In this document: piece after piece, positions 6,165 through 47,728 of the stretch
Layout of the letters: each line of letters begins with the position of its first letter
Position numbering within the stretch: the stretch's first letter is position 1
Notes under the pieces: model-generated
What the model saw: the letters and a program-made list of their open reading frames with translations, nothing else
The model's database searches: none
Told to the model about the DNA's origin: nothing
Position numbers and translations under genes: made by a program
Assembly: GCF_006716355.1 (NCBI RefSeq)
Contig: NZ_VFOW01000001.1
Coordinates: 1,860,001-1,924,000 of the forward strand
DNA length: 64,000 nt
Direction of reading: 5' to 3'
Origin: Stackebrandtia endophytica
Lineage (GTDB): Bacteria > Actinomycetota > Actinomycetes > Mycobacteriales > Micromonosporaceae

Positions 6165-9100
6165 CTACGCCAACTGGCTGAGACCACTGGAGCAACCCAG
6201 TGCCGCGACCGAGAAGTCGGCGCCGACCGAACGTCCCGCCCGAACGGCGAAACTATTGAAGTCGGCGGCCCAACCGTCCTTGGACACGATCACCAGATGC
6301 TGACCGGCGGCGAACCAGTAGGAGAAGTAACCATCGGCATCGGTGGTCAGGTCGTAGCGGGTTCCATCCGGACCGCGGACCTGAACCTGGACGCCGGCCA
6401 ACCCGACGGTGGAACCGTCACAGTTGACACCGGTCACGGTGCCCGTCATCCGACCCATGTTCGCGCCGGGGGCGACGGTCATGGTGACGTCGATGACGAC
6501 GCTGCCGTACGGGGTGTCGGTGCCCAGGTTGATGCCACCGACGTAGGTGCCCGGCTGCGGGACGCCGTCGGCGGCCTTGCCGGACGTGGTGACCTCCAGA
6601 ACGACCGAGTCACCGGGGGCGATGGTCACGGTGGTCTGGTCGGTGTTCAGCCACGGCAGGTCTCCGCCACCGGCGGTGGCGCAGTCGTCGTAGCCGGCCA
6701 GCAGCTCCACGTTGTTCGTCGGAGCGTTACCACCGTCGCGGCCACCGACCTTGAGGAATCCGCAGGCACCCGTGGTGCGGTACCGGGCCTGTCCCGAAGG
6801 AGCAAGCTCGGTCCACGAGTCGGCGGACACGTCGTAGGCGTAGGTCGCGTTGGTCAGAACCGAGCTTCCGTCGGCCGCACCGTTGCTGACGATCAACAGG
6901 CCGTTGGCCACGTCGGCCGCCGCACCCCACACGTCGGTGGGCATGGAGGCGGCTTCGGTCCACTCGTCGGCACCCGCGTTGTAGACGTAGGTGCTGGCGC
7001 TGGTCACGTCACCGTAACCACCGGCGCAGACGATCGCGCTTCCGACACCGCCACAGGCGATGTAAGCGGTCGAGTCCGGGTAGTTACCCAGAACCTCCCA
7101 CGAGTCGGACGCGGGGTCGTAGCGCTGGACGTCCGAGGACGAGGCGCAGTTGCCGTCGATGCAGCCACCGATGATGTACAGCTTGCCGTCGATGGTGGCC
7201 GAACCGGCCGCCCAACGGGCCGCCGGGCCCGAAGCACCCTCGGTCCAGGTGTCGGTCACCGGGTCGTAGATGTACAGCGTGTCCACAGTGTCACCAGTGG
7301 TTCCACCGTAGACGTACAGCAGACCGTTGATGAACGTCGCCGTCGGAAGCTCAAGAGCCTCCGGCAGGTCCGCCACACGGCTCCAGGAGTCACCCTCGTG
7401 GTCGTAGGCGTAAACGGCGCTGCTCAGAGAGCTGCCCGCGACACCCGCGACGACATAGGTGTATCCGTCGTGACTGGCCGACGCGCTGTCGTAAACCGAG
7501 GCCGGGTAGTTGGCCACGGTCGACCACTCGTCATCCGGTCCGAGGTCCGACAGAGTCGAGACACCGGCCGGAACGGCCTTGTCGGCGTCGAACGCCGTCT
7601 TGTCGGCCGGGCTGGTCAACGGAACCTGGGTGCTCTGGTGACCCGACATCGGCGTGAAGCCGCCGCCGGTCTCGCCGACCTCGACGGTCAGCGGAGCCGA
7701 ACCGGTGTTGGTCAGTTCGACTTCCTCGGTCCAGGAACCCTCCATCGTGACGTTGGTGGAGATCGCGGTGGTGGAGACTTCGAGACGTCCGGCGCCGAGG
7801 GTGAAGTCGGCGGTCGCGACCGCCGAGCCCACAACGTCGACACTGGTGGTCTCGTCGACCCAACCGGTGCGCGAAGCGGTGAAGTCGTGCTCACCGAGCT
7901 CCGAGGTGAACAGCCAGTAGAAGCCGTCGGCGAGGTTCTCGTCGGCCGGGGTGGCCGCCGAGACGCCGCTGGCGCCGCTGACGGTGTCGGTCACGGTGAC
8001 CTTGTCCAGGTTGGCGCCGGTGTTGGCGTCAACGGTGTGTCCGACCACCAGGCCGCCGTCGGTCGCGACACAGTCGGGCAGGCCCAACTGGAAGTCGTCG
8101 ACCTGCCAGTACCAAGCCCAGGATCCACCGTCGGTGTACCAGAACTTGAACTGAGCGGCGGTCGCGTCGGCGTAGGCCGACAGGTCGACCTCCTCGGTGC
8201 GAGGTCCGCGCAGACTGGTTTCAGTCGCCCAGAGCTCGTCCCAGGTCTCGCCACCGTCCACACTGATGAGAACGGCTGCGGCGCTGGCGCCGAGGTCGTT
8301 GAAGTCGCTGGAGAACGACAGGCCCGCAGTCGACAACTGGGTCAGGTCGTACACCGGCGAAATCAGCTCGGTGTCGATGATGCCGTGGCCGCTTCCGGCC
8401 GCGTCACTGTCGGCGGTGGCGAAGTTGCCCTCTCCACCGGTCTGGTTGTTGCGGCTCTTCGGGTTGTCGAAGCGCCATCCGTCGTCGGCGGTTCCGCTGT
8501 TGACGACGGTCCAGCCCTCGGGTGCCTCGGTGCCGTCGAAGCCCTCGACGCCCGGCAGGTTGCCGAAGTCGAGTTCGTATCCGGCGGCGGTGCAGGCGAC
8601 GTCGACGGTCAGCGCCACGTCGGCGGCGGTACCGGTGCTGACGTCGGCCTGGCCGATGACGTAACCGGGGTAGACCGACTCGATGGTCAGGCTGTAGTCG
8701 CCCTCGGGCAGGTTCAGAGCGTAAGCGCCGCTCACCGGGTCGGTGAACGTGGACACTCCGGTGCCGTCGGCGGTGACCTTCGCGTAGAGCGGGTAGCCCT
8801 GGCCGCTTCCGTCGGACACGACACCGGTGACGTTTCCGGCGGGAGCCGGTTCCAGGTCGAAGTCGGCGGTGACGGCCTCGTCCTCGACCACCGTAACGGT
8901 GACGGTCGAGGGCAGGTAACCGAACTTGGCGGCGGTGACGGTGTACTCACCGGGCAGCAGGCTGCCGAACGAGTACTCACCGGCGGCGTTGGAGGTGGTG
9001 CTGCGGCTGAAGTCGGCGCTGTCGGCGTTGATCGCGACGCCACCGACGGCGGAACCGTCGGAGGTGACGCTGCCGGCCAGCGAGCCGACTCCGTCCATCG

Positions 9101-10553
9101 GGGAGGCCGAGACCGCGGCGAAGGCGTCGAGCTTGCCCTCACCGAAGACGTTGTTGTTCTCGGCGGTTCCACCACACTGGAGGTCCTCGGTGTCGATGGC
9201 GGTGCCGTTGAGGATCTCCATCGTGGCGGCGACATCACCGCGCAGCGCGGGCGAAGCCGACCACATCAGACCGACCACACCGGCGGTGTGGGGGGAGGCC
9301 ATCGAGGTTCCGGACATGGAGCCGTAACCACTGCCGGGCATCGCGGAACGGGTGTTGACACCCGGTGCGGCGATGTTCGGCTTGACGTTGCCGTCGAGGC
9401 CCGGCCCACGGCCGGAGAAGCTGGCGATGTTGCCGTTGATGTCGAAAGCACCACTGGAGTAGCTGTTGTCGTACAGACCGGGAGATCCGGTCGTGTTACA
9501 GCCGGGTCCGCTGTTGCCGTTGGAGAAGGCCGGGAAGATTCCCGCCGCGATCCAGGCGGCCACGATCTCTTCGTAGAAGGGGTCGTAGGTCGGGATCGTG
9601 GTTCCCCACGAGTTGTTCACGATGTCAGCGGCTTTGGACGGGTCGGGGTTCTGACCGTTGGTGTCGGTCGGAGCGATGATCCACTCACCCGAGCTCAGCA
9701 GGGTGAAGTCGGAGTCGCAGCAACCGTTGGTGGCGATCCAGGTGGCGCCGGGGGCGACACCAATCTCGTTGCTGCCACCGTCGCTACCCACCATGGTTCC
9801 CATGGTGTGGGTGCCGTGTCCGTGGGTGTCACACGCGATGGTGGAACCGCACTTCTCGGCGACGTCGTAGAAGTTGTAGTCGTGGGTGAAGGTGCCGTCG
9901 CCGTTGTTGCCACGGTACTGCTCGACCAACGCGGGGTGGTCGAACTGGACACCGGTGTCGATGCCGGCGATGACGATGTCCTCACCGGTGATACCGAACT
10001 CGCTCCACACGTCGTTGGCGTTGATGGCGTCGATGCCCCATTCAACGTTGTCGACAGTGGCCTCGTTGGTACCCGGCAGGGTCTCGACCATCGGGATGTC
10101 CTGCTGCGGCAGGATCGACGCGACATCGGTGCGCAGAGCCAGATCGCCGACCAGATCGATGTCGCCCTTGACGGCGATGGTGTTCACGATCCAGAAGCTG
10201 TCGAACTCCACACCGTTCTCGGTGAGCAGTTCCTTGATCTCGCCCTGGGTCTCCTCGGCATGAGCGGTCTTCGCCTCATATACCGCGGTTCCCTTGGCGG
10301 TCTTTCCCTCGGCTTCGTAGGCGGCGGACAGGTCGGCGTCCGAATCCAGGCGGATCCAGAAGTCGGCTGCACCATCGGCTTCCAATGCGGACAGCACGTC
10401 GGCGTCCACCTTGGAGGCGATGGCCTGATCCACCGTCATGTTCTCAAGACCGGGGTCGGCATATGCCGGCTGTGACCCCAGAATCAGCGGAACGGCGACT
10501 GTGACGGCTACCGCCGCACCCGCCGCCGTTCTGCGTCGTCGTGATCCAGTCAC
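6165..10553 (-). CDS. Secreted subtilisin-like (S8) protease with kelch repeats, 1462 aa
   Basis: A basic N-terminus and hydrophobic core ending in AYA form a signal peptide (about 1-32). A propeptide-like region follows to about 160. The S8 catalytic domain spans about 175-480, with Asp199 in AGIDTGV, His246 in HGHGTHT and Ser417 in GTSMASPH. After it come two or three carboxypeptidase-regulatory-like beta domains (about 490-640), a MAM or immune-inhibitor-like beta domain (about 650-800), further beta domains, five or six kelch units (about 985-1260, repeats such as YVYGGTTGD and YIIGGCIDGN), and a final beta domain. It is an extracellular endopeptidase resembling bacillopeptidase F-like proteins, and the kelch propeller may bind substrate or surface polymer. 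It is a single-gene unit ending at a strong terminator. Confidence 0.95.
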   Translation of the reverse strand: MTGSRRRRTAAGAAVAVTVAVPLILGSQPAYADPGLENMTVDQAIASKVDADVLSALEADGAADFWIRLDSDADLSAAYEAEGKTAKGTAVYEAKTAHAEETQGEIKELLTENGVEFDSFWIVNTIAVKGDIDLVGDLALRTDVASILPQQDIPMVETLPGTNEATVDNVEWGIDAINANDVWSEFGITGEDIVIAGIDTGVQFDHPALVEQYRGNNGDGTFTHDYNFYDVAEKCGSTIACDTHGHGTHTMGTMVGSDGGSNEIGVAPGATWIATNGCCDSDFTLLSSGEWIIAPTDTNGQNPDPSKAADIVNNSWGTTIPTYDPFYEEIVAAWIAAGIFPAFSNGNSGPGCNTTGSPGLYDNSYSSGAFDINGNIASFSGRGPGLDGNVKPNIAAPGVNTRSAMPGSGYGSMSGTSMASPHTAGVVGLMWSASPALRGDVAATMEILNGTAIDTEDLQCGGTAENNNVFGEGKLDAFAAVSASPMDGVGSLAGSVTSDGSAVGGVAINADSADFSRSTTSNAAGEYSFGSLLPGEYTVTAAKFGYLPSTVTVTVVEDEAVTADFDLEPAPAGNVTGVVSDGSGQGYPLYAKVTADGTGVSTFTDPVSGAYALNLPEGDYSLTIESVYPGYVIGQADVSTGTAADVALTVDVACTAAGYELDFGNLPGVEGFDGTEAPEGWTVVNSGTADDGWRFDNPKSRNNQTGGEGNFATADSDAAGSGHGIIDTELISPVYDLTQLSTAGLSFSSDFNDLGASAAAVLISVDGGETWDELWATETSLRGPRTEEVDLSAYADATAAQFKFWYTDGGSWAWYWQVDDFQLGLPDCVATDGGLVVGHTVDANTGANLDKVTVTDTVSGASGVSAATPADENLADGFYWLFTSELGEHDFTASRTGWVDETTSVDVVGSAVATADFTLGAGRLEVSTTAISTNVTMEGSWTEEVELTNTGSAPLTVEVGETGGGFTPMSGHQSTQVPLTSPADKTAFDADKAVPAGVSTLSDLGPDDEWSTVANYPASVYDSASASHDGYTYVVAGVAGSSLSSAVYAYDHEGDSWSRVADLPEALELPTATFINGLLYVYGGTTGDTVDTLYIYDPVTDTWTEGASGPAARWAAGSATIDGKLYIIGGCIDGNCASSSDVQRYDPASDSWEVLGNYPDSTAYIACGGVGSAIVCAGGYGDVTSASTYVYNAGADEWTEAASMPTDVWGAAADVANGLLIVSNGAADGSSVLTNATYAYDVSADSWTELAPSGQARYRTTGACGFLKVGGRDGGNAPTNNVELLAGYDDCATAGGGDLPWLNTDQTTVTIAPGDSVVLEVTTSGKAADGVPQPGTYVGGINLGTDTPYGSVVIDVTMTVAPGANMGRMTGTVTGVNCDGSTVGLAGVQVQVRGPDGTRYDLTTDADGYFSYWFAAGQHLVIVSKDGWAADFNSFAVRAGRSVGADFSVAALGCSSGLSQLA

Positions 10554-31903: not shown

Positions 31904-32029
31904 ATGGAAAAGAAGAAGAGCCCCAACAAGTCCAACCTCGATTCCATGCTGGGCAGCATCGAACGCAAGGTGCCGGCCGCCAAACCAGCCAGCGTGACCT
32001 GCAGGAACTGGTACTGCTCCCCCATGTAG
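31904..32029 (+). CDS. RiPP precursor peptide A (41 aa)
   Basis: A 41-residue peptide starting MEKKKSPNKS, with a helical, charged leader (DSMLGSIERKVP) and a C-terminal core-like segment TCRNWYCSPM. The last 12 residues contain Ser, Thr and two Cys, the residues used by lanthipeptide synthetases. GGAGGA lies four bases before the ATG. A paralogue begins 195 bases downstream and the two are nearly identical over the first 30 residues. A LanM-type dehydratase gene follows. I infer that the leader guides the synthetase and that the segment around C-x-x-W-Y-C is modified. No standard cleavage site such as GG is visible. Confidence 0.85.
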   Translation: MEKKKSPNKSNLDSMLGSIERKVPAAKPASVTCRNWYCSPM

Positions 32030-32224
32030 GACGCTGAGTTCGAGGTCGTCGGGCGCAGCCGGCGGGTGTCTCGACGGAAACCGATCGGACCGCCGACACA
32101 AGGCGTATCCTCATCGGACTCACCGAGCAAACCGCCATGGGCCCGTCATGGCGAGTATCGTGGAGTCACCAGAACATCACGCGTGATTCAGATGTGGCGC
32201 CGCACAACTCCCCTCGGAGGAATC

Positions 32225-32344
32225 ATGGAAAAGAAGAAGAGCCCGAACAAGTCCAAGCTGGATTCCATGCTGGGCAGCGTAGAACGCAAGGTACCTGTGG
32301 CCAAGCCGGCCCTGAATTCCTGCGCAAGCTGGTACTGCGTCTAG
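32225..32344 (+). CDS. RiPP precursor peptide B (39 aa)
   Basis: A 39-residue paralogue of peptide A: 26 of the first 30 residues are the same. The core differs, ending NSCASWYCV. Both peptides share [S/T]-C-x-[N/S]-W-Y-C, so selection is acting on a C-terminal motif while the residues around it vary, which is the usual RiPP pattern. The ribosome site and start context (GGAGGAATCATGGAAAAG) are identical to those of peptide A, so the two genes arose by duplication. A strong hairpin follows nine bases after the stop. Confidence 0.85.
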   Translation: MEKKKSPNKSKLDSMLGSVERKVPVAKPALNSCASWYCV

Positions 32345-32352
32345 CTTGAACC

Positions 32353-32382
32353 CCCTCTCCCCGAGGGGACTCGGGGAGAGGG
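32353..32382 (+). terminator. Hairpin between precursor B and the synthetase (attenuator)
   Basis: 13-bp perfect arms (left arm CCCTCTCCCCGAG) with a GGGA loop. It can act as a partial terminator that gives more precursor than enzyme transcript, a common RiPP arrangement. Its right arm contains GGGGAGAGGG, which is also the only good Shine-Dalgarno for the ATG at 32,392, so the folded hairpin would hide that ribosome site. Confidence 0.75.
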
Positions 32383-32391
32383 TCATGCTTT

Positions 32392-34650
32392 ATGGACAGT
32401 GTTCTATGGAGGCCCGGGCCGTCGCGCATGTCACCGGCCGCCGCGAGCATCGCCGAAGCCGTCGCCGCCGGCCGATGCGGCGCGATGTTCCCTTCGGTGG
32501 CCACCCCGATCGAGGGACGTATCCGACCGGTACGGCGACTGGCGGGTCCTCACGATGCGGAGTTCGTAGCGGCCGCACTGTCGGCGCCGCAGTTTCGACC
32601 GGTGGTCGATGCGATCAAGCACGCAACCGCCTGGTGCGAGGCCACCGATGGCCACGACCTGGTGGCGACGGGGGTGTTGAGCATCGACAACGACGACCTG
32701 TTCGGTCCGCTGTTCACCGAACTGTTCACGGTGTGCGCCGCCAATCGAATATCCCAAGTCGATTCGTACTGTCACTCTCGTCTGCTGGGCTGGTTGACCT
32801 ACCTCGAATCGTTTCTCCAGCACCTACGTGCCGACCGGGGAGACCTGGCCGACCGCTTCGGGCTGGGCCAGACGATCGTATCGATCACCGCGCAGGACAA
32901 CGAAACCCACAACCGCGGACGGCGGGTCTTGAGACTGGCCGATGCCGGTGGCGTGACCGTGGCATACAAGGCGCGGCCCGCTGTAGGTGAGTCGATGTTT
33001 CTGTCGGACGACGGTTCGGTGTTCGAACTGGTCAACTCCCTTGTCGACGAACAAACCTCCGAGCTCCCGACACTGACCTGCCTGGCACGTGGAACGGACG
33101 CCGATTCCCGGCTGTGGCAGGAGTGGATCGAGCCGATGCAGCGGGAGCCGATCCTGCGCCGCGACGACGTGACGGTGAATGGCCCGGTGCTGCCGACGGC
33201 ACAGGCCCCGTTGTTCTGGAGCCGTGCCGGCGCGCTGGCCGCCGCCTCGATGGCTTTCGGAATCGGCGATCTCATCGAGGGCAACATCATCTGCGGACGC
33301 CGGGCCGGTGAAGTGCTGCCTCGTTACCACGTCGTCGATCTCGAAGTCTTTGGAAGTCACGTCGTTCGCCTGTCGGAGACCGGCTTGATCACCGGGCCCG
33401 GGCCGCTGCACCACGTCGGATTCGAAAGCCGACCGCGAGCCTGCACGGTGGATCCCCCAATGGTCTACTTTCGACATGACGACATGGCTCTGGTCCGTTC
33501 AGATCGTTCCTGGACACGGCAGACCACCGACACCGTCGTCTCCGATTCGGACGGCCGGTTCGGCTACGGCCAATACCTTCCCGACTTTATTCGTGGCGCC
33601 TTCGATCTGTGGGCGATACTGTGCCACCACCGCGATGAGATCGGCGCGGTCCTTTCGAATCGGTACGGCGACACCGCGGTGACTAGGGTTCTACCTCGTG
33701 AGACCGGCGACTACGCGCACGCTCTCGAACGGCTGCTCTTGGACGGTCAGGAACCTGCAGGACACTTCAACCGGGCCGAGCGTGAGCAGTTGCTAGCCGG
33801 CGACGTTCCCTACTTTCACGTCACCGCAGGCGATCCCGCTACACTGTACACACTGGATGGTCCGACCGGCGAGTCGCCGGACATCCGTTTCTTCGACACC
33901 GATGGCTGGGACCTCAGCGCCTTCGGCACGGTCATACGCGATGCCGTGCTGTTCGTGAAACCGACGTCACCCGACCGTGCCGCCGGGGTACGAACCGGTT
34001 ATCACGAAGTCGCCATCGATTGGACGGACGTCGATTCCCGGCTCATCTACATCTGGGATGACGACACCGTGCGACTACAGGTCACCGACCTCGACGACCC
34101 GACCGGGCTCGACGAGGTGTCGACACGGCTGCGCCGCATCGACCACGCCGACGCGACACTTCGTTCCGCCTGGGTCGAGAGCGGGAAGAAGGACGAGGAT
34201 CTCGCGACCCGGTTGGCACAACTGTGCGGCGAAGCGGCGCTCTGGCTGGAGTCCGTTGTGGATGAACACGGCTGGCCGACGGCCGCCATGGTGGGCGCCG
34301 AGGCTGCCGCAGCGGCGTGCCGACTTCTGCAACACATGGACGGATCATTCGATTTTCGACACCGTTGTCTGCGCGAGATGACCTCTGCGGCGCAGAACAA
34401 CGCCGTGCCGCTCGCCGACGTCGCCTACGTGACCGATGCCGTGCGCCTGTCGGAGGGACGACCTCAGCTGTACGGCACGAAGTTCGAACTGCGAAACGGC
34501 GAATTCCTCCCCGGTCGGCTGGCCGACCCCGACGGCGTCGACGCGCTGCGGGCCTCCATGGGGATGCCGCCGCTGGCCGAGTACGCCGAGAAGATCCGCC
34601 AACGCTTCGGACACACCATCACCTCACCCGCCGCTGGAGCCGCCCCGTGA
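32392..34650 (+). CDS. LanM-type dehydratase domain fused to DUF6624, no cyclase
   Basis: A 752-residue protein. Residues about 50-480 match the dehydratase half of class II lanthipeptide synthetases (DUF4135): HNRGRRV (173-179), AYKAR with K193, D293-L-I-E-G-N298, VVDLE (314-318), R432...RETGDY (436-441) and EQLLAGDVPYF (465-475). This half phosphorylates Ser/Thr with ATP and eliminates phosphate. Two positions differ from the usual motifs: the histidine of DLHxxN is Ile295, and the GDxH motif reads NETH. Where LanM has a zinc LanC cyclase, residues about 580-740 are a DUF6624 domain (HGWPTAAMVG, AYVTDAVRLSEGRPQLYGT, PPLAEY). Any rings would therefore form spontaneously, need another enzyme, or not form. 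The stop overlaps the next gene by four bases. An internal ATG at 32,428 is an alternative start. Confidence 0.85.
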   Translation: MDSVLWRPGPSRMSPAAASIAEAVAAGRCGAMFPSVATPIEGRIRPVRRLAGPHDAEFVAAALSAPQFRPVVDAIKHATAWCEATDGHDLVATGVLSIDNDDLFGPLFTELFTVCAANRISQVDSYCHSRLLGWLTYLESFLQHLRADRGDLADRFGLGQTIVSITAQDNETHNRGRRVLRLADAGGVTVAYKARPAVGESMFLSDDGSVFELVNSLVDEQTSELPTLTCLARGTDADSRLWQEWIEPMQREPILRRDDVTVNGPVLPTAQAPLFWSRAGALAAASMAFGIGDLIEGNIICGRRAGEVLPRYHVVDLEVFGSHVVRLSETGLITGPGPLHHVGFESRPRACTVDPPMVYFRHDDMALVRSDRSWTRQTTDTVVSDSDGRFGYGQYLPDFIRGAFDLWAILCHHRDEIGAVLSNRYGDTAVTRVLPRETGDYAHALERLLLDGQEPAGHFNRAEREQLLAGDVPYFHVTAGDPATLYTLDGPTGESPDIRFFDTDGWDLSAFGTVIRDAVLFVKPTSPDRAAGVRTGYHEVAIDWTDVDSRLIYIWDDDTVRLQVTDLDDPTGLDEVSTRLRRIDHADATLRSAWVESGKKDEDLATRLAQLCGEAALWLESVVDEHGWPTAAMVGAEAAAAACRLLQHMDGSFDFRHRCLREMTSAAQNNAVPLADVAYVTDAVRLSEGRPQLYGTKFELRNGEFLPGRLADPDGVDALRASMGMPPLAEYAEKIRQRFGHTITSPAAGAAP

Positions 34651-35789
34651 ACTGGACCGAGATCGCCGACGGCTGGAACCGAGCGCACATCGTCACCTCC
34701 ACGGCACCGAGCTTCGCCCCCGAGTACGTCTTCTCGGTGATCCGCGACGCCTGCGTGCCGTTCGCACGGGGGATGCGACACTTCGCCCTGCCGGCGCTGA
34801 CATTCGAGGCCGACGGACACCCGATGACCGCGCCCGGTGGGTTGTTGCCCTCCAACGACGACGGTTCGATGTCGGAATACCGCACCAGGATGAGCGGCCA
34901 CGCCCGAACCTGGCGGCTGTGTCTGACGGAGCCGCTGTTCACCGATTATCGGCTCTGGTCACAGGTCCGCGATCTGCTGATGCCACTGTGGCGGACCGAG
35001 GTCGGGCTTCCGGTACTCGCGGTGGCCTCCGAGCTGATCGCCGCCCAGGGCCCCGTGCGGGTCTGCGACGCCGAGACCACTCACATCGGACTGATCGTGA
35101 CGCTGTCGGGCAGCATGACACTCCATAATGGTGATACCACGCGGCGAGTTGAGGCCGGTGACGTGGTTCACCTGGCCGATAGCGGCCCGGCGACCCTGCA
35201 CACCGACGATTCCTGTCTGGTGCTGCGATTGCGGGTACCGACCGGGCGTCGGCTCCCCGCGACCGAGGCGTTGAAGGTGCTCACCGACGTCATCGCGGCA
35301 GATGCGATGGAGGCTGCCGAACCGGTGCCGCAGCCGCTGTTTCCGCCGCCGGTACGTGGCCGGGAGCTGCTGCTCGAGACCTCCGAAGCCAAGGAGCGGC
35401 CACCGCACCGAGACGACTTCGTGGCCAGGGCTCGACAACTGGCTCATCTGTGGTGGGCGGGCCGTGCCAGCGCGGCAGGTCTAGACCCCGCCCCCGAGCC
35501 GGGGGAACCACACCCGCTCGCGTCGGAGGACCTGGTGCGGCTTGACGCGCCGATTCTCGTGGCGTCGGGGCTCGAACCCGATACCGACCTGTGGTCGGTC
35601 AACGGGATGGTGTTCACCGTTCGCGGGCCGACCCCCGATCGGATCCTGCAACTGTTGCGTACCAACGAGATCGTATCGGTCGACTGGCTGTGCCGCGACG
35701 AGGACGGACACGACAACGGTGCCGAACCACTAGTCAACCGACTGCATGCGCTGCGCGCTGTCAAGCTCGTCGAGGAGGCCCGGGCATGA
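34647..35789 (+). CDS. JmjC/cupin-like protein without an iron site (pseudo-oxygenase)
   Basis: A 380-residue protein with a cupin core at about 130-205 (GLIVTLSGSMTLHNGDTTRRVEAGDVVHLADSGPATLH) and a C-terminal winged-helix-like domain at about 285-380. Aligned on the shared LSG strand with the next gene product, the HxD iron ligands fall on Ala and Thr here and the distal histidine is not conserved, so iron catalysis is unlikely. I infer a scaffold or substrate-binding partner of the active oxygenase encoded next. It starts at GTG inside the synthetase stop and overlaps the next gene by four bases, giving strict coupling of three modification proteins. Confidence 0.7.
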   Translation: MNWTEIADGWNRAHIVTSTAPSFAPEYVFSVIRDACVPFARGMRHFALPALTFEADGHPMTAPGGLLPSNDDGSMSEYRTRMSGHARTWRLCLTEPLFTDYRLWSQVRDLLMPLWRTEVGLPVLAVASELIAAQGPVRVCDAETTHIGLIVTLSGSMTLHNGDTTRRVEAGDVVHLADSGPATLHTDDSCLVLRLRVPTGRRLPATEALKVLTDVIAADAMEAAEPVPQPLFPPPVRGRELLLETSEAKERPPHRDDFVARARQLAHLWWAGRASAAGLDPAPEPGEPHPLASEDLVRLDAPILVASGLEPDTDLWSVNGMVFTVRGPTPDRILQLLRTNEIVSVDWLCRDEDGHDNGAEPLVNRLHALRAVKLVEEARA

Positions 35790-37039
35790 GTTCGATATCG
35801 GTGGAGGAGACCCTCGACTGGGAGGTGTTCGTCTCACGCTACTGGGACCGGGCCCCAGTGCTGTTTCGCTCACCAGGGCCCGTACCGTTCGTCGCCGAAG
35901 AGGTCTTCGAGGCCGCAACCGCGACGGTGGGGCCCGACGGTGCGGCGTCCAAGGCGGTCCAGTTGACCTCCGAGGGGCGTCGGCTCCCCACCATCGACCG
36001 CGCAACGCCACACGTCGACGACGGCGACTTCGACAGCTACGTCTCGCGAATCACCGAACGTCTCGGCGGTGATCGTCATGCCCTGGTCATCTCCAGTTTC
36101 CATGCCTATGGTCCGGCCATGTGGAGTCGGCAACGCGCCTTCTTCGCTCCCCTGTGGCAGCGAGTGGGAATTCCCATGACCACCGCGCTGACCACGCTCT
36201 TTCACGGTAATTACGAGCACTCCCCGGTTGGTGTCCACAAAGATCGATACGGCACGTTCATGTATGTCCTGTCGGGCCGTAAACGGATGCGAATGTGGAG
36301 CCGACGGCCGTGGGAGCACGACGCCAGCACCATCGTCGACTACGACCAGTACCTCGACTCCTCTATCAGCGCCGAAGCCGAAGCCGGCCAGTTGTTGTAC
36401 TGGCCGTCGAGCCACTTCCACGTCGGCGAGAACATCGGCGATCAGCCCGCCACGAGTGTCAACGTCGGAGTGCCTCGCGAGGAACGCCGCATGGACCAGG
36501 AGACGGTCGCCCTCCTGGGGGACACCCCCGCCGCCGAATACGGCGACGTCGGCGCCTACCTCGCATCGGTCCTGCCGCCGGTTGAGGCCGCGATGTTCAC
36601 CGACGGCATCGCCGCTCAACCACCCGACGCGCTGCGACTCGGCCTAGACCAGGTGGTCTCTCGACTCACGGTGGCGTGGACGGGACGACGACGGCGCGAG
36701 TTGGCATTGAACCGCTACACCGCCGGGGGATTCCAACCGGTACCCGCCGCCCGACCACTACACCGCCTGTCCACCAGGGATCGGCTGCGCCTCGATCCCG
36801 CCGCGTCGATCCTGTGGTGTGTCGTCGACGAGACGTCGGCCCTGTGCTCCGCCAACGGACACACCGCGACCGAAACGCTCTCACCAAGGGCGATGGGCAC
36901 GCTGTTCGACGGCCTCGACCGGGCTCAGCCACCGACCGTCACCGAGCTGTGCCGAGCCGTCGATCCCGGGGAACGGGACAAGACGGCCTCACTGCTCGCG
37001 GAACTGTGCGCATTCCGCGCCCTTGACGTGTCGAGATGA
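35786..37039 (+). CDS. JmjC-type Fe(II)/2-oxoglutarate oxygenase with winged-helix tail
   Basis: A 417-residue protein with the JmjC/ribosomal-oxygenase layout. The cupin core at about 130-230 has H151 and D153 in VHKDRYG and a distal histidine in SSHFHVGE (H210 or H212), followed by the NVGVP strand. Residues about 330-417 (LRLDPAASILWCVVDE to ELCAFRALDV) form a small winged-helix-like domain resembling PqqD-type recognition elements or the tail of ribosomal oxygenases. Such enzymes hydroxylate amino-acid side chains. The two precursor peptides encoded upstream are the obvious substrates, with Trp, Tyr, Asn and Arg near the C-x-x-W-Y-C motif as candidates. ATG follows GAGGAGG. It is the last gene of the locus. 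Confidence 0.78.
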   Translation: MSSISVEETLDWEVFVSRYWDRAPVLFRSPGPVPFVAEEVFEAATATVGPDGAASKAVQLTSEGRRLPTIDRATPHVDDGDFDSYVSRITERLGGDRHALVISSFHAYGPAMWSRQRAFFAPLWQRVGIPMTTALTTLFHGNYEHSPVGVHKDRYGTFMYVLSGRKRMRMWSRRPWEHDASTIVDYDQYLDSSISAEAEAGQLLYWPSSHFHVGENIGDQPATSVNVGVPREERRMDQETVALLGDTPAAEYGDVGAYLASVLPPVEAAMFTDGIAAQPPDALRLGLDQVVSRLTVAWTGRRRRELALNRYTAGGFQPVPAARPLHRLSTRDRLRLDPAASILWCVVDETSALCSANGHTATETLSPRAMGTLFDGLDRAQPPTVTELCRAVDPGERDKTASLLAELCAFRALDVSR

Positions 37040-46043: not shown

Positions 46044-46170
46044 TGATTGGTGGGTGCGGTGTTCGGGGATGTGTGGACCCCTCGTGAGCGTCGACTTTGC
46101 ACCCCCGGGCGTCGCAGGCGAACTGTATCCTGTTCAGAACCTCACGAACACCGATCGCATCGGAGGCGCC

Positions 46171-46536
46171 ATGGGCTCCCTGATCTCCGAAACGCCGCGA
46201 GAAGGTCCTGAAGTCACCGAAATCCGCCTCTCTATCTCCGACGGTGCCGAGCTGCGCTCACTCCGTGAACATCTGCGGCGCATTCGCGGGGTGGAGATCG
46301 AGCAGATTCCATTCGCGAGCCGACCCGGATCACTCGGTGCCAGCGACGTCCTCCAGATTGCGGTCCCCGCAGTCGGAGTGATCGCAGTCGTCATCCGGAC
46401 CCTCCCCGACTTCATCCGCTCGCGCCGCTCGTCGGTCACCATCACTGTGGAGTCCGGGGACATGAAGGCCACCATCACTGGTGAGAACATCGACGACATC
46501 GAGCCCATCGTCAAGCGGTTCTACCCCGATGCCTGA
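46171..46536 (+). CDS. EACC1-like effector-associated constant component
   Basis: A 121-residue protein with the plan of EACC1, a small component described next to caspase, NTPase and other effectors in actinobacterial conflict systems. The N-terminal half carries ELRSLREHLRRIRGVEI, a single hydrophobic helix follows (VLQIAVPAVGVIAVVIRTL, about 66-84), and a C-terminal beta unit ends in TITVESGDMKATITGEN. CGGAGG lies five bases before the ATG. The stop overlaps the caspase gene start by eight bases. Likely role: adaptor or membrane anchor for the effector. Assignment by pattern only. Confidence 0.72.
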   Translation: MGSLISETPREGPEVTEIRLSISDGAELRSLREHLRRIRGVEIEQIPFASRPGSLGASDVLQIAVPAVGVIAVVIRTLPDFIRSRRSSVTITVESGDMKATITGENIDDIEPIVKRFYPDA

Positions 46537-47728
46537 TGCGCTTGACGGCGATTACTCCAGCTCGCGCGCGATCCTGATGGGCACCTGGTCATACCAGCAC
46601 CTCGACCCGGTCGATGCAGTCGAACGCAGTTTCAACCGTATGCACGGGCTCCTGCGAAGTCCGATTTGCGGCACATGGCCGGATAACCGCATCACTCTGA
46701 TCGCGGACGCGCCGACAGTCGGTGACATCAGGCGCGAACTCATAGCGTCCTTCCTGAACGTGCGAGATGTCGCACTCTTCTACTACGTCGGTCATGGCCT
46801 CTACGATTTCGAGGACCGGTTGCACCTGACCGTCCAGGGCAGTGAATCGGCCGCCGCGTTCCGCTCCGCTACGAGCCTGCCCTTCGAAGCAGTCCGCGAG
46901 GCTTTCTTCCACAGCAAGGCTCGCACCAAGATCGCCATTCTCGACTGCTGCTACGCCGGCCTCGCCGCCCGCCCCGGTGGGTCCCTGGGCGTCGAGGGAC
47001 CACTTCCGAATTCCGGGTCTTACCTCATGATGAGTAGCAGCGGATACGCCCAGTCCTGGTACGAGCTGCCCGATACCTCCCCGAAGCCGCAGACCTACTT
47101 CACAAAGTACTTCGTGGACACGGTCGAGTCGGGCATCCCGGGGAGGCCATCGACACTGACGCTCATGGACCTCTTCGAGTCCGTATCCCACCAGCTCGAA
47201 GAGGCCGATATTCCAGAACCCAGGAGCCGTTCAGACGATCGGGCGGCGGGGTTCGCATTCGCTCGCAACAAGTCCGCCGAAGCCGTATCGGAAGCGACCA
47301 GCCCGGACGAGCTCTACGCCCAAGCAATGCAGCTTCAACGGGAAGGCGGCGCAGAGAACCTGCCGACCATGAAGGCCCGGTTCCGGACCGCTGCAGAACA
47401 GGGCCATTCCCGTGCGATGGTCCAGTTGGGACTTATCGCTGAAGGCCGAACGCTCGCGGAGCTGGAGGGCGTCCCGTTCAAGGCCGACGCCGACTCCGAC
47501 ATGGCAACGGCGGTGCACTGGTACACGATGGCGTCCGAACGCGGCGATGACGGTGCGGCCTTTCTCCTCGGCCACATCCATGAAGAGGTCTACCACGAGG
47601 TGGACGAAGCCCTGAGTTGGTACCAACTCGCAGTGAACCGCGGCAATAGCGCTGCAAGGGAACGACTCAGCAGGCTCCGGTACCGGCGGGAACACGGACT
47701 CGGCCACGGTCGCCGAGAGAGAGGTTGA
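46529..47728 (+). CDS. Caspase-family (C14) protease with Sel1-like repeats
   Basis: A 399-residue protein. The caspase-fold domain at about 10-220 has the catalytic histidine H89 in YYVGHGLYDFED and the cysteine C141 in LDCCYAG, so both active residues are intact. The C-terminal part (about 250-395) contains Sel1/TPR-like repeats (AMVQLGLIAEG, AVHWYTMASERGDDGAAFLLGHIHEE, ALSWYQLAVNRGN) that usually bind proteins. With EACC1 upstream, this fits a stress or infection-triggered protease effector. The repeats would sense a signal or recruit a target. It is followed six bases later by a hypothetical gene. Confidence 0.85.
   Translation: MPDALDGDYSSSRAILMGTWSYQHLDPVDAVERSFNRMHGLLRSPICGTWPDNRITLIADAPTVGDIRRELIASFLNVRDVALFYYVGHGLYDFEDRLHLTVQGSESAAAFRSATSLPFEAVREAFFHSKARTKIAILDCCYAGLAARPGGSLGVEGPLPNSGSYLMMSSSGYAQSWYELPDTSPKPQTYFTKYFVDTVESGIPGRPSTLTLMDLFESVSHQLEEADIPEPRSRSDDRAAGFAFARNKSAEAVSEATSPDELYAQAMQLQREGGAENLPTMKARFRTAAEQGHSRAMVQLGLIAEGRTLAELEGVPFKADADSDMATAVHWYTMASERGDDGAAFLLGHIHEEVYHEVDEALSWYQLAVNRGNSAARERLSRLRYRREHGLGHGRRERG

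What the first reader, a model, noticed from the sequence alone, without database searches (positions are those of the whole stretch)
31904..37039. Compact RiPP locus: twin precursors, LanM dehydratase-DUF6624 fusion and paired JmjC proteins
Two tandem short peptides with a common leader and variable core are followed by three translationally coupled genes (4-bp overlaps) for a lanthipeptide-type dehydratase without cyclase and two JmjC/cupin proteins. Seen directly: the gene order, overlaps, hairpin and motifs. Known: LanM dehydratases phosphorylate and dehydrate Ser/Thr, and JmjC enzymes hydroxylate side chains. Inferred: a new class or subclass of modified peptide. I know of no described pathway with this set. 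No dedicated exporter or leader protease is encoded nearby.
Basis: partly seen in the sequence, partly recalled or inferred. Interest (0 to 1): 0.92.

Follow-up and report, generated by a model that had tools for sequence, protein, structure and literature searches.

The report
Peptide-modifying cassette with cyclase-free dehydratase
A small gene set found in dozens of bacteria appears to make a chemically modified, cysteine-containing mini-peptide with an unusual combination of enzymes that I found in no paper available to me, which would make it a new kind of bacterial natural product pathway to test.

Summary
Observation confirmed: two 39-41 aa peptides with one leader, then E (752 aa, DUF4135+DUF6624), J1 and J2, joined by 4-base overlaps. 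The set recurs. Of 58 loci, 57 carry a short ORF just upstream of E ending in [ST]-C-x(3-5)-Y-C-x(0-4): 74 of 885 upstream ORFs match, 0 of 7,404 other ORFs. J1 and J2 accompany E wherever the contig reaches, except at one degenerate E, in Actinomycetota and in Lysobacter/Luteimonas. E keeps LanM kinase and elimination residues but has DUF6624 where LanM has its cyclase. J2 keeps the JmjC iron ligands (42 of 42); J1 has the ribosomal-oxygenase fold without them. A LanC gene follows J2 in 23 of 23 four-Cys loci with enough contig and 0 of 28 two-Cys loci; two two-Cys genomes show no LanC anywhere. Most likely E dehydrates the conserved Ser/Thr and J2 oxidises the core; how the two-Cys form closes its ring, if it does, is open. 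Ten searches of an open-licence library showed no matching pathway; subscription literature was not covered.

The parts
31904..32029 (+). Precursor peptide A1 (41 aa), core ending ...SVTCRNWYCSPM
   Evidence: ORF with SD GGAGG; core motif [ST]C-x(3-5)-YC shared with relatives
32225..32344 (+). Precursor peptide A2 (39 aa), core ending ...NSCASWYCV
   Evidence: ORF, 79% identical to A1 over 38 aa; motif
32353..32382 (+). 13-bp perfect hairpin between A2 and E; its 3' arm holds an SD-like GAGAGGG before E (attenuation role inferred)
   Evidence: z -2.9 in the window; mean z -1.8 and 14 of 43 loci below -2
32392..34650 (+). E: LanM-type Ser/Thr dehydratase fused to DUF6624 (752 aa)
   Evidence: Pfam; residues of the LanM kinase and elimination sites conserved in 43 aligned E proteins and aligned with the genome's own LanM
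34132..34611 (+). DUF6624 domain of E (residues 581-740), an all-helical domain in the place of LanM's cyclase
   Evidence: Pfam (32 of 32 family members scanned); model pLDDT 90.6
34647..35789 (+). J1: ribosomal-oxygenase-fold JmjC protein without the HxD...H metal ligands, with a C-terminal winged-helix/RRE-like domain
   Evidence: alignment; model; YcfD-type fold
35786..37039 (+). J2: JmjC Fe(II)/2-oxoglutarate oxygenase with H151-x-D153...H212
   Evidence: Pfam JmjC_2; triad in 42 of 42 aligned J2

Best explanation
It is a biosynthetic cassette for a ribosomally made, post-translationally modified peptide (RiPP). Shown by sequence: a short precursor, mostly with a leader of the form [FL]-D-x-[VM]-[IL]-G-x-[LIV]-E, and a C-terminal core [ST]-C-x(3-5)-Y-C, beside E, J1 and J2. 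Inferred mechanism: J1 (a pseudo-JmjC protein) and the RRE-like tail of J1, and probably that of J2, hold the leader; E uses ATP to phosphorylate the conserved Ser/Thr just before the first Cys of the motif and then eliminates phosphate to give dehydroalanine/dehydrobutyrine; J2 hydroxylates or otherwise oxidises a core residue (the invariant Tyr or a neighbouring Cys are the candidates). In four-Cys precursors a dedicated LanC then adds Cys to the dehydro residues to make lanthionine rings. In two-Cys precursors such as those of the window there is no LanC; the last Cys either adds to the dehydro residue without LanC (spontaneously or helped by E/DUF6624), giving a ring with five to seven residues between the linked positions, or the ring is a disulfide or another oxidative link. 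My confidence by step: RiPP cassette 0.95; dehydration of the conserved Ser/Thr 0.7; J2 an active oxygenase on the core 0.7; thioether ring in the two-Cys type 0.4.
Against: No chemistry was measured. The position of CylM His349 is Ile, Gly or another residue in 41 of 43 E proteins; CylM-H349A is slow but active (PMC4550811), so phosphorylation could be altered. NCBIfam's LanM model is far below its cut-off (42 bits against 304; at most 44 in four relatives). Both Cys types share the T-C...Y-C motif although only one has LanC, so the motif alone does not prove a thioether. One E (L161, G654) lacks DUF6624 and that genome has no match to it. The LanC/four-Cys link rests on as few as two evolutionary events. 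Only 47 of 74 precursors fit the strict leader pattern.
Confidence: 0.7

Rival explanations
1. An ordinary class II-like lanthipeptide pathway whose cyclase works in trans: the two-Cys clusters borrow a LanC or LanM cyclase encoded elsewhere.
For: G000 has LanC domains in three other places, and 12 of 13 further genomes searched carry some; four-Cys relatives do use an adjacent LanC.
Against: G480 (completeness listed 100%, 320 contigs) and G1079 (99%, 200 contigs) carry two-Cys clusters and no LANC_like match at E 0.001; 0 of 28 two-Cys loci have a LanC in the fetched flank.
Confidence: 0.2
2. The product is not lanthionine-type: E only phosphorylates, or leaves a free dehydro residue, and the key link (for instance Tyr- or Cys-centred) is made by J2; DUF6624 binds the phosphorylated or dehydrated peptide.
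For: Tyr stands next to the last Cys of the motif in all 74 matches (by the pattern), and searches that also allowed F, W or H there found only Tyr on the strand of E; no LanC for the two-Cys type; family-specific loss of the His349 equivalent; CcaM shows that a DUF4135 enzyme can dehydrate without making rings (PMC10676384, passages).
Against: The Arg506 and Thr512 equivalents of the elimination site are kept, and LanC recurs in the four-Cys branch, which needs dehydro residues.
Confidence: 0.3
3. The short ORFs are chance and the enzymes act on something else.
For: Each peptide is only about 40-60 aa, and the motif was written down after the first precursors had been seen.
Against: 0 of 7,404 control ORFs against 74 of 885 upstream ORFs, in 57 of 58 loci.
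Confidence: 0.02

Closest known systems
Class II lanthipeptide synthetase LanM (e.g. CylM)
   Same: DUF4135 dehydratase with kinase and elimination residues in the same order
   Different: No C-terminal LanC cyclase, DUF6624 instead; His349 position not conserved; very low score to NCBIfam LanM
Dehydrazoles (CcaM/LanMbC, carnazolamide; PMC10676384, passages seen)
   Same: DUF4135 fused to a non-standard C-terminal domain, dehydration without lanthionine rings
   Different: [quoted passage not shown] here DUF6624, J1, J2 and a Cys/Tyr core
Graspetide clusters with DUF6624 (PMC13097080, passages seen)
   Same: DUF6624 near RiPP precursors, called there a possible undiscovered class of biosynthetic enzyme
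   Different: Those use a graspetide (ATP-grasp) synthetase; none was found beside E in the window, and DUF6624 is here fused to a dehydratase with its own residue changes
Ribosomal oxygenases YcfD/NO66/MINA53 and the biphenomycin JmjC hydroxylase BipG (PMC12707348, passages seen)
   Same: JmjC fold (J1 model); a JmjC enzyme acting on a RiPP core
   Different: Here two paralogues, one without metal ligands, tied to a LanM-type dehydratase

Membership tests
RiPP biosynthetic cluster | Short precursor gene with leader and recurrent core beside modifying enzymes | tested here: met
   57 of 58 loci, 74 precursors, 0 of 7,404 control ORFs; strict leader pattern in 47 of 74, relaxed in 65 of 74
RiPP biosynthetic cluster | Core is chemically modified and cut from the leader | not testable with these tools
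   needs expression and mass spectrometry
Class II lanthipeptide synthetase (LanM) | DUF4135 dehydratase domain with kinase/elimination residues | tested here: met
   one residue (His349 position) differs in 41 of 43
Class II lanthipeptide synthetase (LanM) | C-terminal LanC cyclase in the same protein | tested here: not met
   Pfam finds DUF6624 there and no LANC_like in the window's E and three relatives; LanM NCBIfam cut-off not reached
Lanthipeptide | Lanthionine or methyllanthionine in the product | not testable with these tools
   LanC adjacent only in the four-Cys branch
Graspetide | ATP-grasp ligase in the cluster | tested here: not met
   no ATP-grasp match among the 35 of 51 window ORFs scanned, which include nearly all within 10 kb
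Dehydrazole | YcaO cyclodehydratase beside a DUF4135 enzyme | tested here: not met
   no YcaO match among the 35 window ORFs scanned
JmjC Fe(II)/2OG oxygenase (J2) | HxD...H triad in a JmjC fold | tested here: met
   Pfam JmjC_2 over cut-off in the window and four of four relatives; triad in 42 of 42
JmjC Fe(II)/2OG oxygenase (J1) | HxD...H triad | tested here: not met
   no conserved triad in 42 aligned J1; one row of 42 (L090) has an HxD and two an HxE in that stretch, not shared by the others; the fold matches

The most novel reading that the evidence does not exclude
A separate RiPP class defined by a DUF4135-DUF6624 dehydratase with a pseudo-JmjC/JmjC pair, in which the two-Cys branch closes or links the [ST]-C-x3-5-Y-C core without any LanC, by chemistry of DUF6624 or J2 not seen before, and whose lack of exporter, immunity and protease genes beside the set points to a product acting inside the producer, perhaps as a redox or metal-binding peptide rather than an antibiotic.
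Probability: 0.35. Interest if true: 0.92.

Novelty: new variant of a known kind. Interest (0 to 1): 0.8.

Why it matters
It gives a sizeable, clean, testable family (58 loci here) with one core motif. It offers a domain of unknown function, DUF6624, a concrete biochemical setting in the position of a missing cyclase; a natural pair of branches, with and without LanC, to ask how thioether formation evolved or was replaced; and a case of a metal-less JmjC paralogue kept beside an intact one. Heterologous tests are simple because the cassette is four to five genes.

Tried and rejected

Papers: JmjC with lanthipeptide and dehydratase gave two papers on other subjects (passages); DUF6624 one (passages); DUF4135 with JmjC none; CylM residues (passages); graspetide/aminomalonic acid the same graspetide paper; DUF4135 with lanthipeptide nine, two of them seen in passages, the other seven as listing only; split/standalone LanM or PF20329 none; nothing matching. 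PMC12186529 is not held. PMC4550811, PMC10676384, PMC11251773, PMC12707348, PMC12710340 and PMC13097080 were seen as passages only. Whether surveys of peptides beside cyclase domains (such as PMC11251773) list the four-Cys precursors was not checked.

Rows dropped: one search aligned 43 E proteins out of 49 rows (L033, L063, L064 dropped as copies of L126, L117, L086; L122, L124, L126 truncated or broken), 42 J1 and 42 J2. Structure alignments used 32 of 41 usable DUF6624 rows and 31 of 39 J1 rows. One search used 58 loci: the window, all 43, L031, L032 and 12 of the 20 regions; the other eight were taken as the same contigs as loci because their contig lengths agree. A distance of 4,500 bases beyond E was required to call LanC absent; six loci were contig ends. 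One search counts J2 in 54 loci, but the L109 hit is J1 itself (same coordinates), so I count 53.

Full report
What is in the window. Two short genes, A1 (31904-32029) and A2 (32225-32344), encode MEKKKSPNKSNLDSMLGSIERKVPAAKPASVTCRNWYCSPM and MEKKKSPNKSKLDSMLGSVERKVPVAKPALNSCASWYCV. A 13-bp hairpin (32353-32382) lies between A2 and E. E (32392-34650), J1 (34647-35789) and J2 (35786-37039) overlap by four bases each. E has DUF4135 (71 bits) and DUF6624 (54 bits); J2 has JmjC_2 just over its cut-off; J1 has no Pfam match over cut-off. The flanks are housekeeping or unrelated genes: Ppx/GppA, DivIC, SOD and MgtE upstream, a PNGaseA-like protein, PP2C, LuxR-type and Rieske genes downstream. The window lies in a 5.66 Mb genome with one E.

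Recurrence. E matches along most of its length, beside J1 and J2, turned up in three of 298 genomes of its order and three of 394 of its class, the window's own genome counted in both; most other matches there were to DUF6624 alone. With a profile and E <= 1e-60, 14 of 394 genomes of the family of G480 and 8 of 300 of the window's own family match; one of the eight is the degenerate L169. A pattern-based scan of the 84,980-species collection gave 43 loci: Streptomyces, Kitasatospora, Nonomuraea, Sphaerisporangium, Catenulispora, Fodinicola, a Nocardiopsaceae MAG, and in Pseudomonadota Luteimonas and Lysobacter. Over 58 loci, J1 is found in 55 and J2 in 53 (one search says 54, but its L109 hit is J1 itself). 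J1 is missing in L122, L124 and L169, J2 in these and in L109 and L123; all but L169 are contig ends. In Luteimonas J1 sits upstream of E.

Precursors. I searched all ORFs of 25 residues or more in these 58 loci for a C-terminal [ST]-C-x(3-5)-Y-C-x(0-4): 74 of 885 ORFs on the strand of E ending within 3 kb upstream match, and 0 of 7,404 others. The pattern was set after seeing the first precursors and was widened after L088 and L123, so it describes the family rather than predicting it blindly; the control counts carry the weight. 57 of 58 loci have at least one. Patterns that allowed F, W or H in place of Tyr found only Tyr on the strand of E; the one other match was on the opposite strand of L168. 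Of the 74, the first residue is Thr in 56 and Ser in 18, and the loop is 3, 4 or 5 residues in 51, 19 and 4. A strict leader pattern [FL]-D-x-[VM]-[IL]-G-x-[LIV]-E fits 47 of 74 and a relaxed one 65 of 74; among the nine left over, four are the Lysobacter ones, which keep little of it.

Two branches. Four-Cys cores (for example GTACGTCAGVYCC in Streptomyces, CxxCTCxxxYC in Fodinicola) go with a LanC-family gene directly after J2: 23 of 23 loci with enough contig, two more being contig ends. Two-Cys cores, including the window's, have no LanC within the fetched flank: 0 of 28, four more being contig ends. The LanC proteins tested match Pfam LANC_like over cut-off; of 24 LanC rows (two genomes counted twice) 20 show the W-C-Y-G and 22 the C-H-G motif of the zinc site (motifs recalled), the others being broken frames. 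On a tree of 54 E proteins the four-Cys label (23 rows, L109 included) needs two changes, forced by well-supported branches, so the correlation may reflect as few as two evolutionary events; the tool warned of long branches among the two-Cys rows. The window's genome and the 12 other genomes with a match do have LanC domains elsewhere.

The dehydratase. Aligned with 43 E proteins and with the window genome's own LanM (L170), E keeps the lysine of YKxR, the Asp and Asn of the D-x-x-x-x-N loop, the Asp of DLE/DME, the P-loop His and the Arg of the elimination site in 43 of 43; the following Thr is Ser in two; the P-loop Asp is Glu. PMC4550811 (passages) assigns CylM Asp347, Asn352, Asp364, His349 and Lys274 to the phosphorylation site and finds Asp252, His254, Arg506 and Thr512 important for elimination. 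The His349 position is Ile, Gly or another residue in 41 of 43 E proteins; only the two Fodinicola-type rows (G004) have His. CylM-H349A was slow but active (same passages), so E may still work, though this needs testing. I mapped residues through L170 and the printed motif, not through the CylM sequence itself.

DUF6624. All 32 family members scanned match PF20329. The model is nearly all helical and confident (pLDDT 90.6) with no clear PDB relative. Compared with 37 stand-alone DUF6624 proteins found on the way, the fused form shares G-W-P, Q-H, the Asp of residue 682 and Q-x-Y-G-T, but has Lys for Gln after YGT (30 of 32 against Gln in 37 of 37) and a Cys (31 of 32) where the others mostly have Ala (26 of 37). 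PMC13097080 (passages) reports DUF6624 at high frequency in four graspetide groups as a possible undiscovered class of biosynthetic enzyme. One E (L161) has no DUF6624 and its genome has no match to it, so the domain is not absolutely required.

Mechanism. Leader binding by J1/J2, phosphorylation and elimination of the conserved Ser/Thr by E, and oxidation by J2 follow from the families; none is measured. LanC would close rings in the four-Cys branch. For the two-Cys branch, the window's, three options remain: LanC-free thioether, disulfide or other oxidative link, or a dehydrated linear peptide. No exporter or leader protease was recognised as a conserved part of the set, which leaves open that the product stays in the cell.

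Novelty. Ten searches of the open-licence library showed no pathway with this set; one search was about CylM. Most subscription papers are not held, so the family may already be described elsewhere. I rate it a new variant of a known kind (RiPP, LanM-type dehydration), with a fair chance that its chemistry defines a class of its own.

Noticed in passing
window 46054-47725: An EACC1 domain gene overlapping a caspase-like (Peptidase_C14) gene, about 9 kb downstream; from recall, EACC1 marks predicted conflict/defence systems.
   Followed up: no
L169 4615-6288: A degenerate E relative in the window's genus (G1064) without DUF6624, J1, J2 or precursor and with the kinase DxxxxN region altered.
   Followed up: partly
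L161 4202-6409: An E without DUF6624 but with precursor, J1 and J2; the genome has no DUF6624 match.
   Followed up: yes
L063 and L117 (LanC region); L033 and L126 (E and LanC regions): LanC in Streptomyces globisporus 1912-4Crt and E/LanC in Fodinicola feengrottensis are split over frames, by decay or assembly error.
   Followed up: no
L111, L112, L116: Luteimonas clusters have two to three precursors, J1 upstream of E, and a longer loop (C-x4-Y-C); with the Lysobacter rows they form one group of E (95/89 support, long branches), suggesting transfer between phyla.
   Followed up: partly
window 6168-10553: A 1462-aa subtilase with kelch repeats on the minus strand.
   Followed up: no
L004-L024, L046-L062: Stand-alone DUF6624 proteins with a near-invariant D-R...G-x-x-Q-x-Y-G-T-Q signature are frequent in the sampled Actinomycetota genomes and unexplained.
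   Followed up: partly
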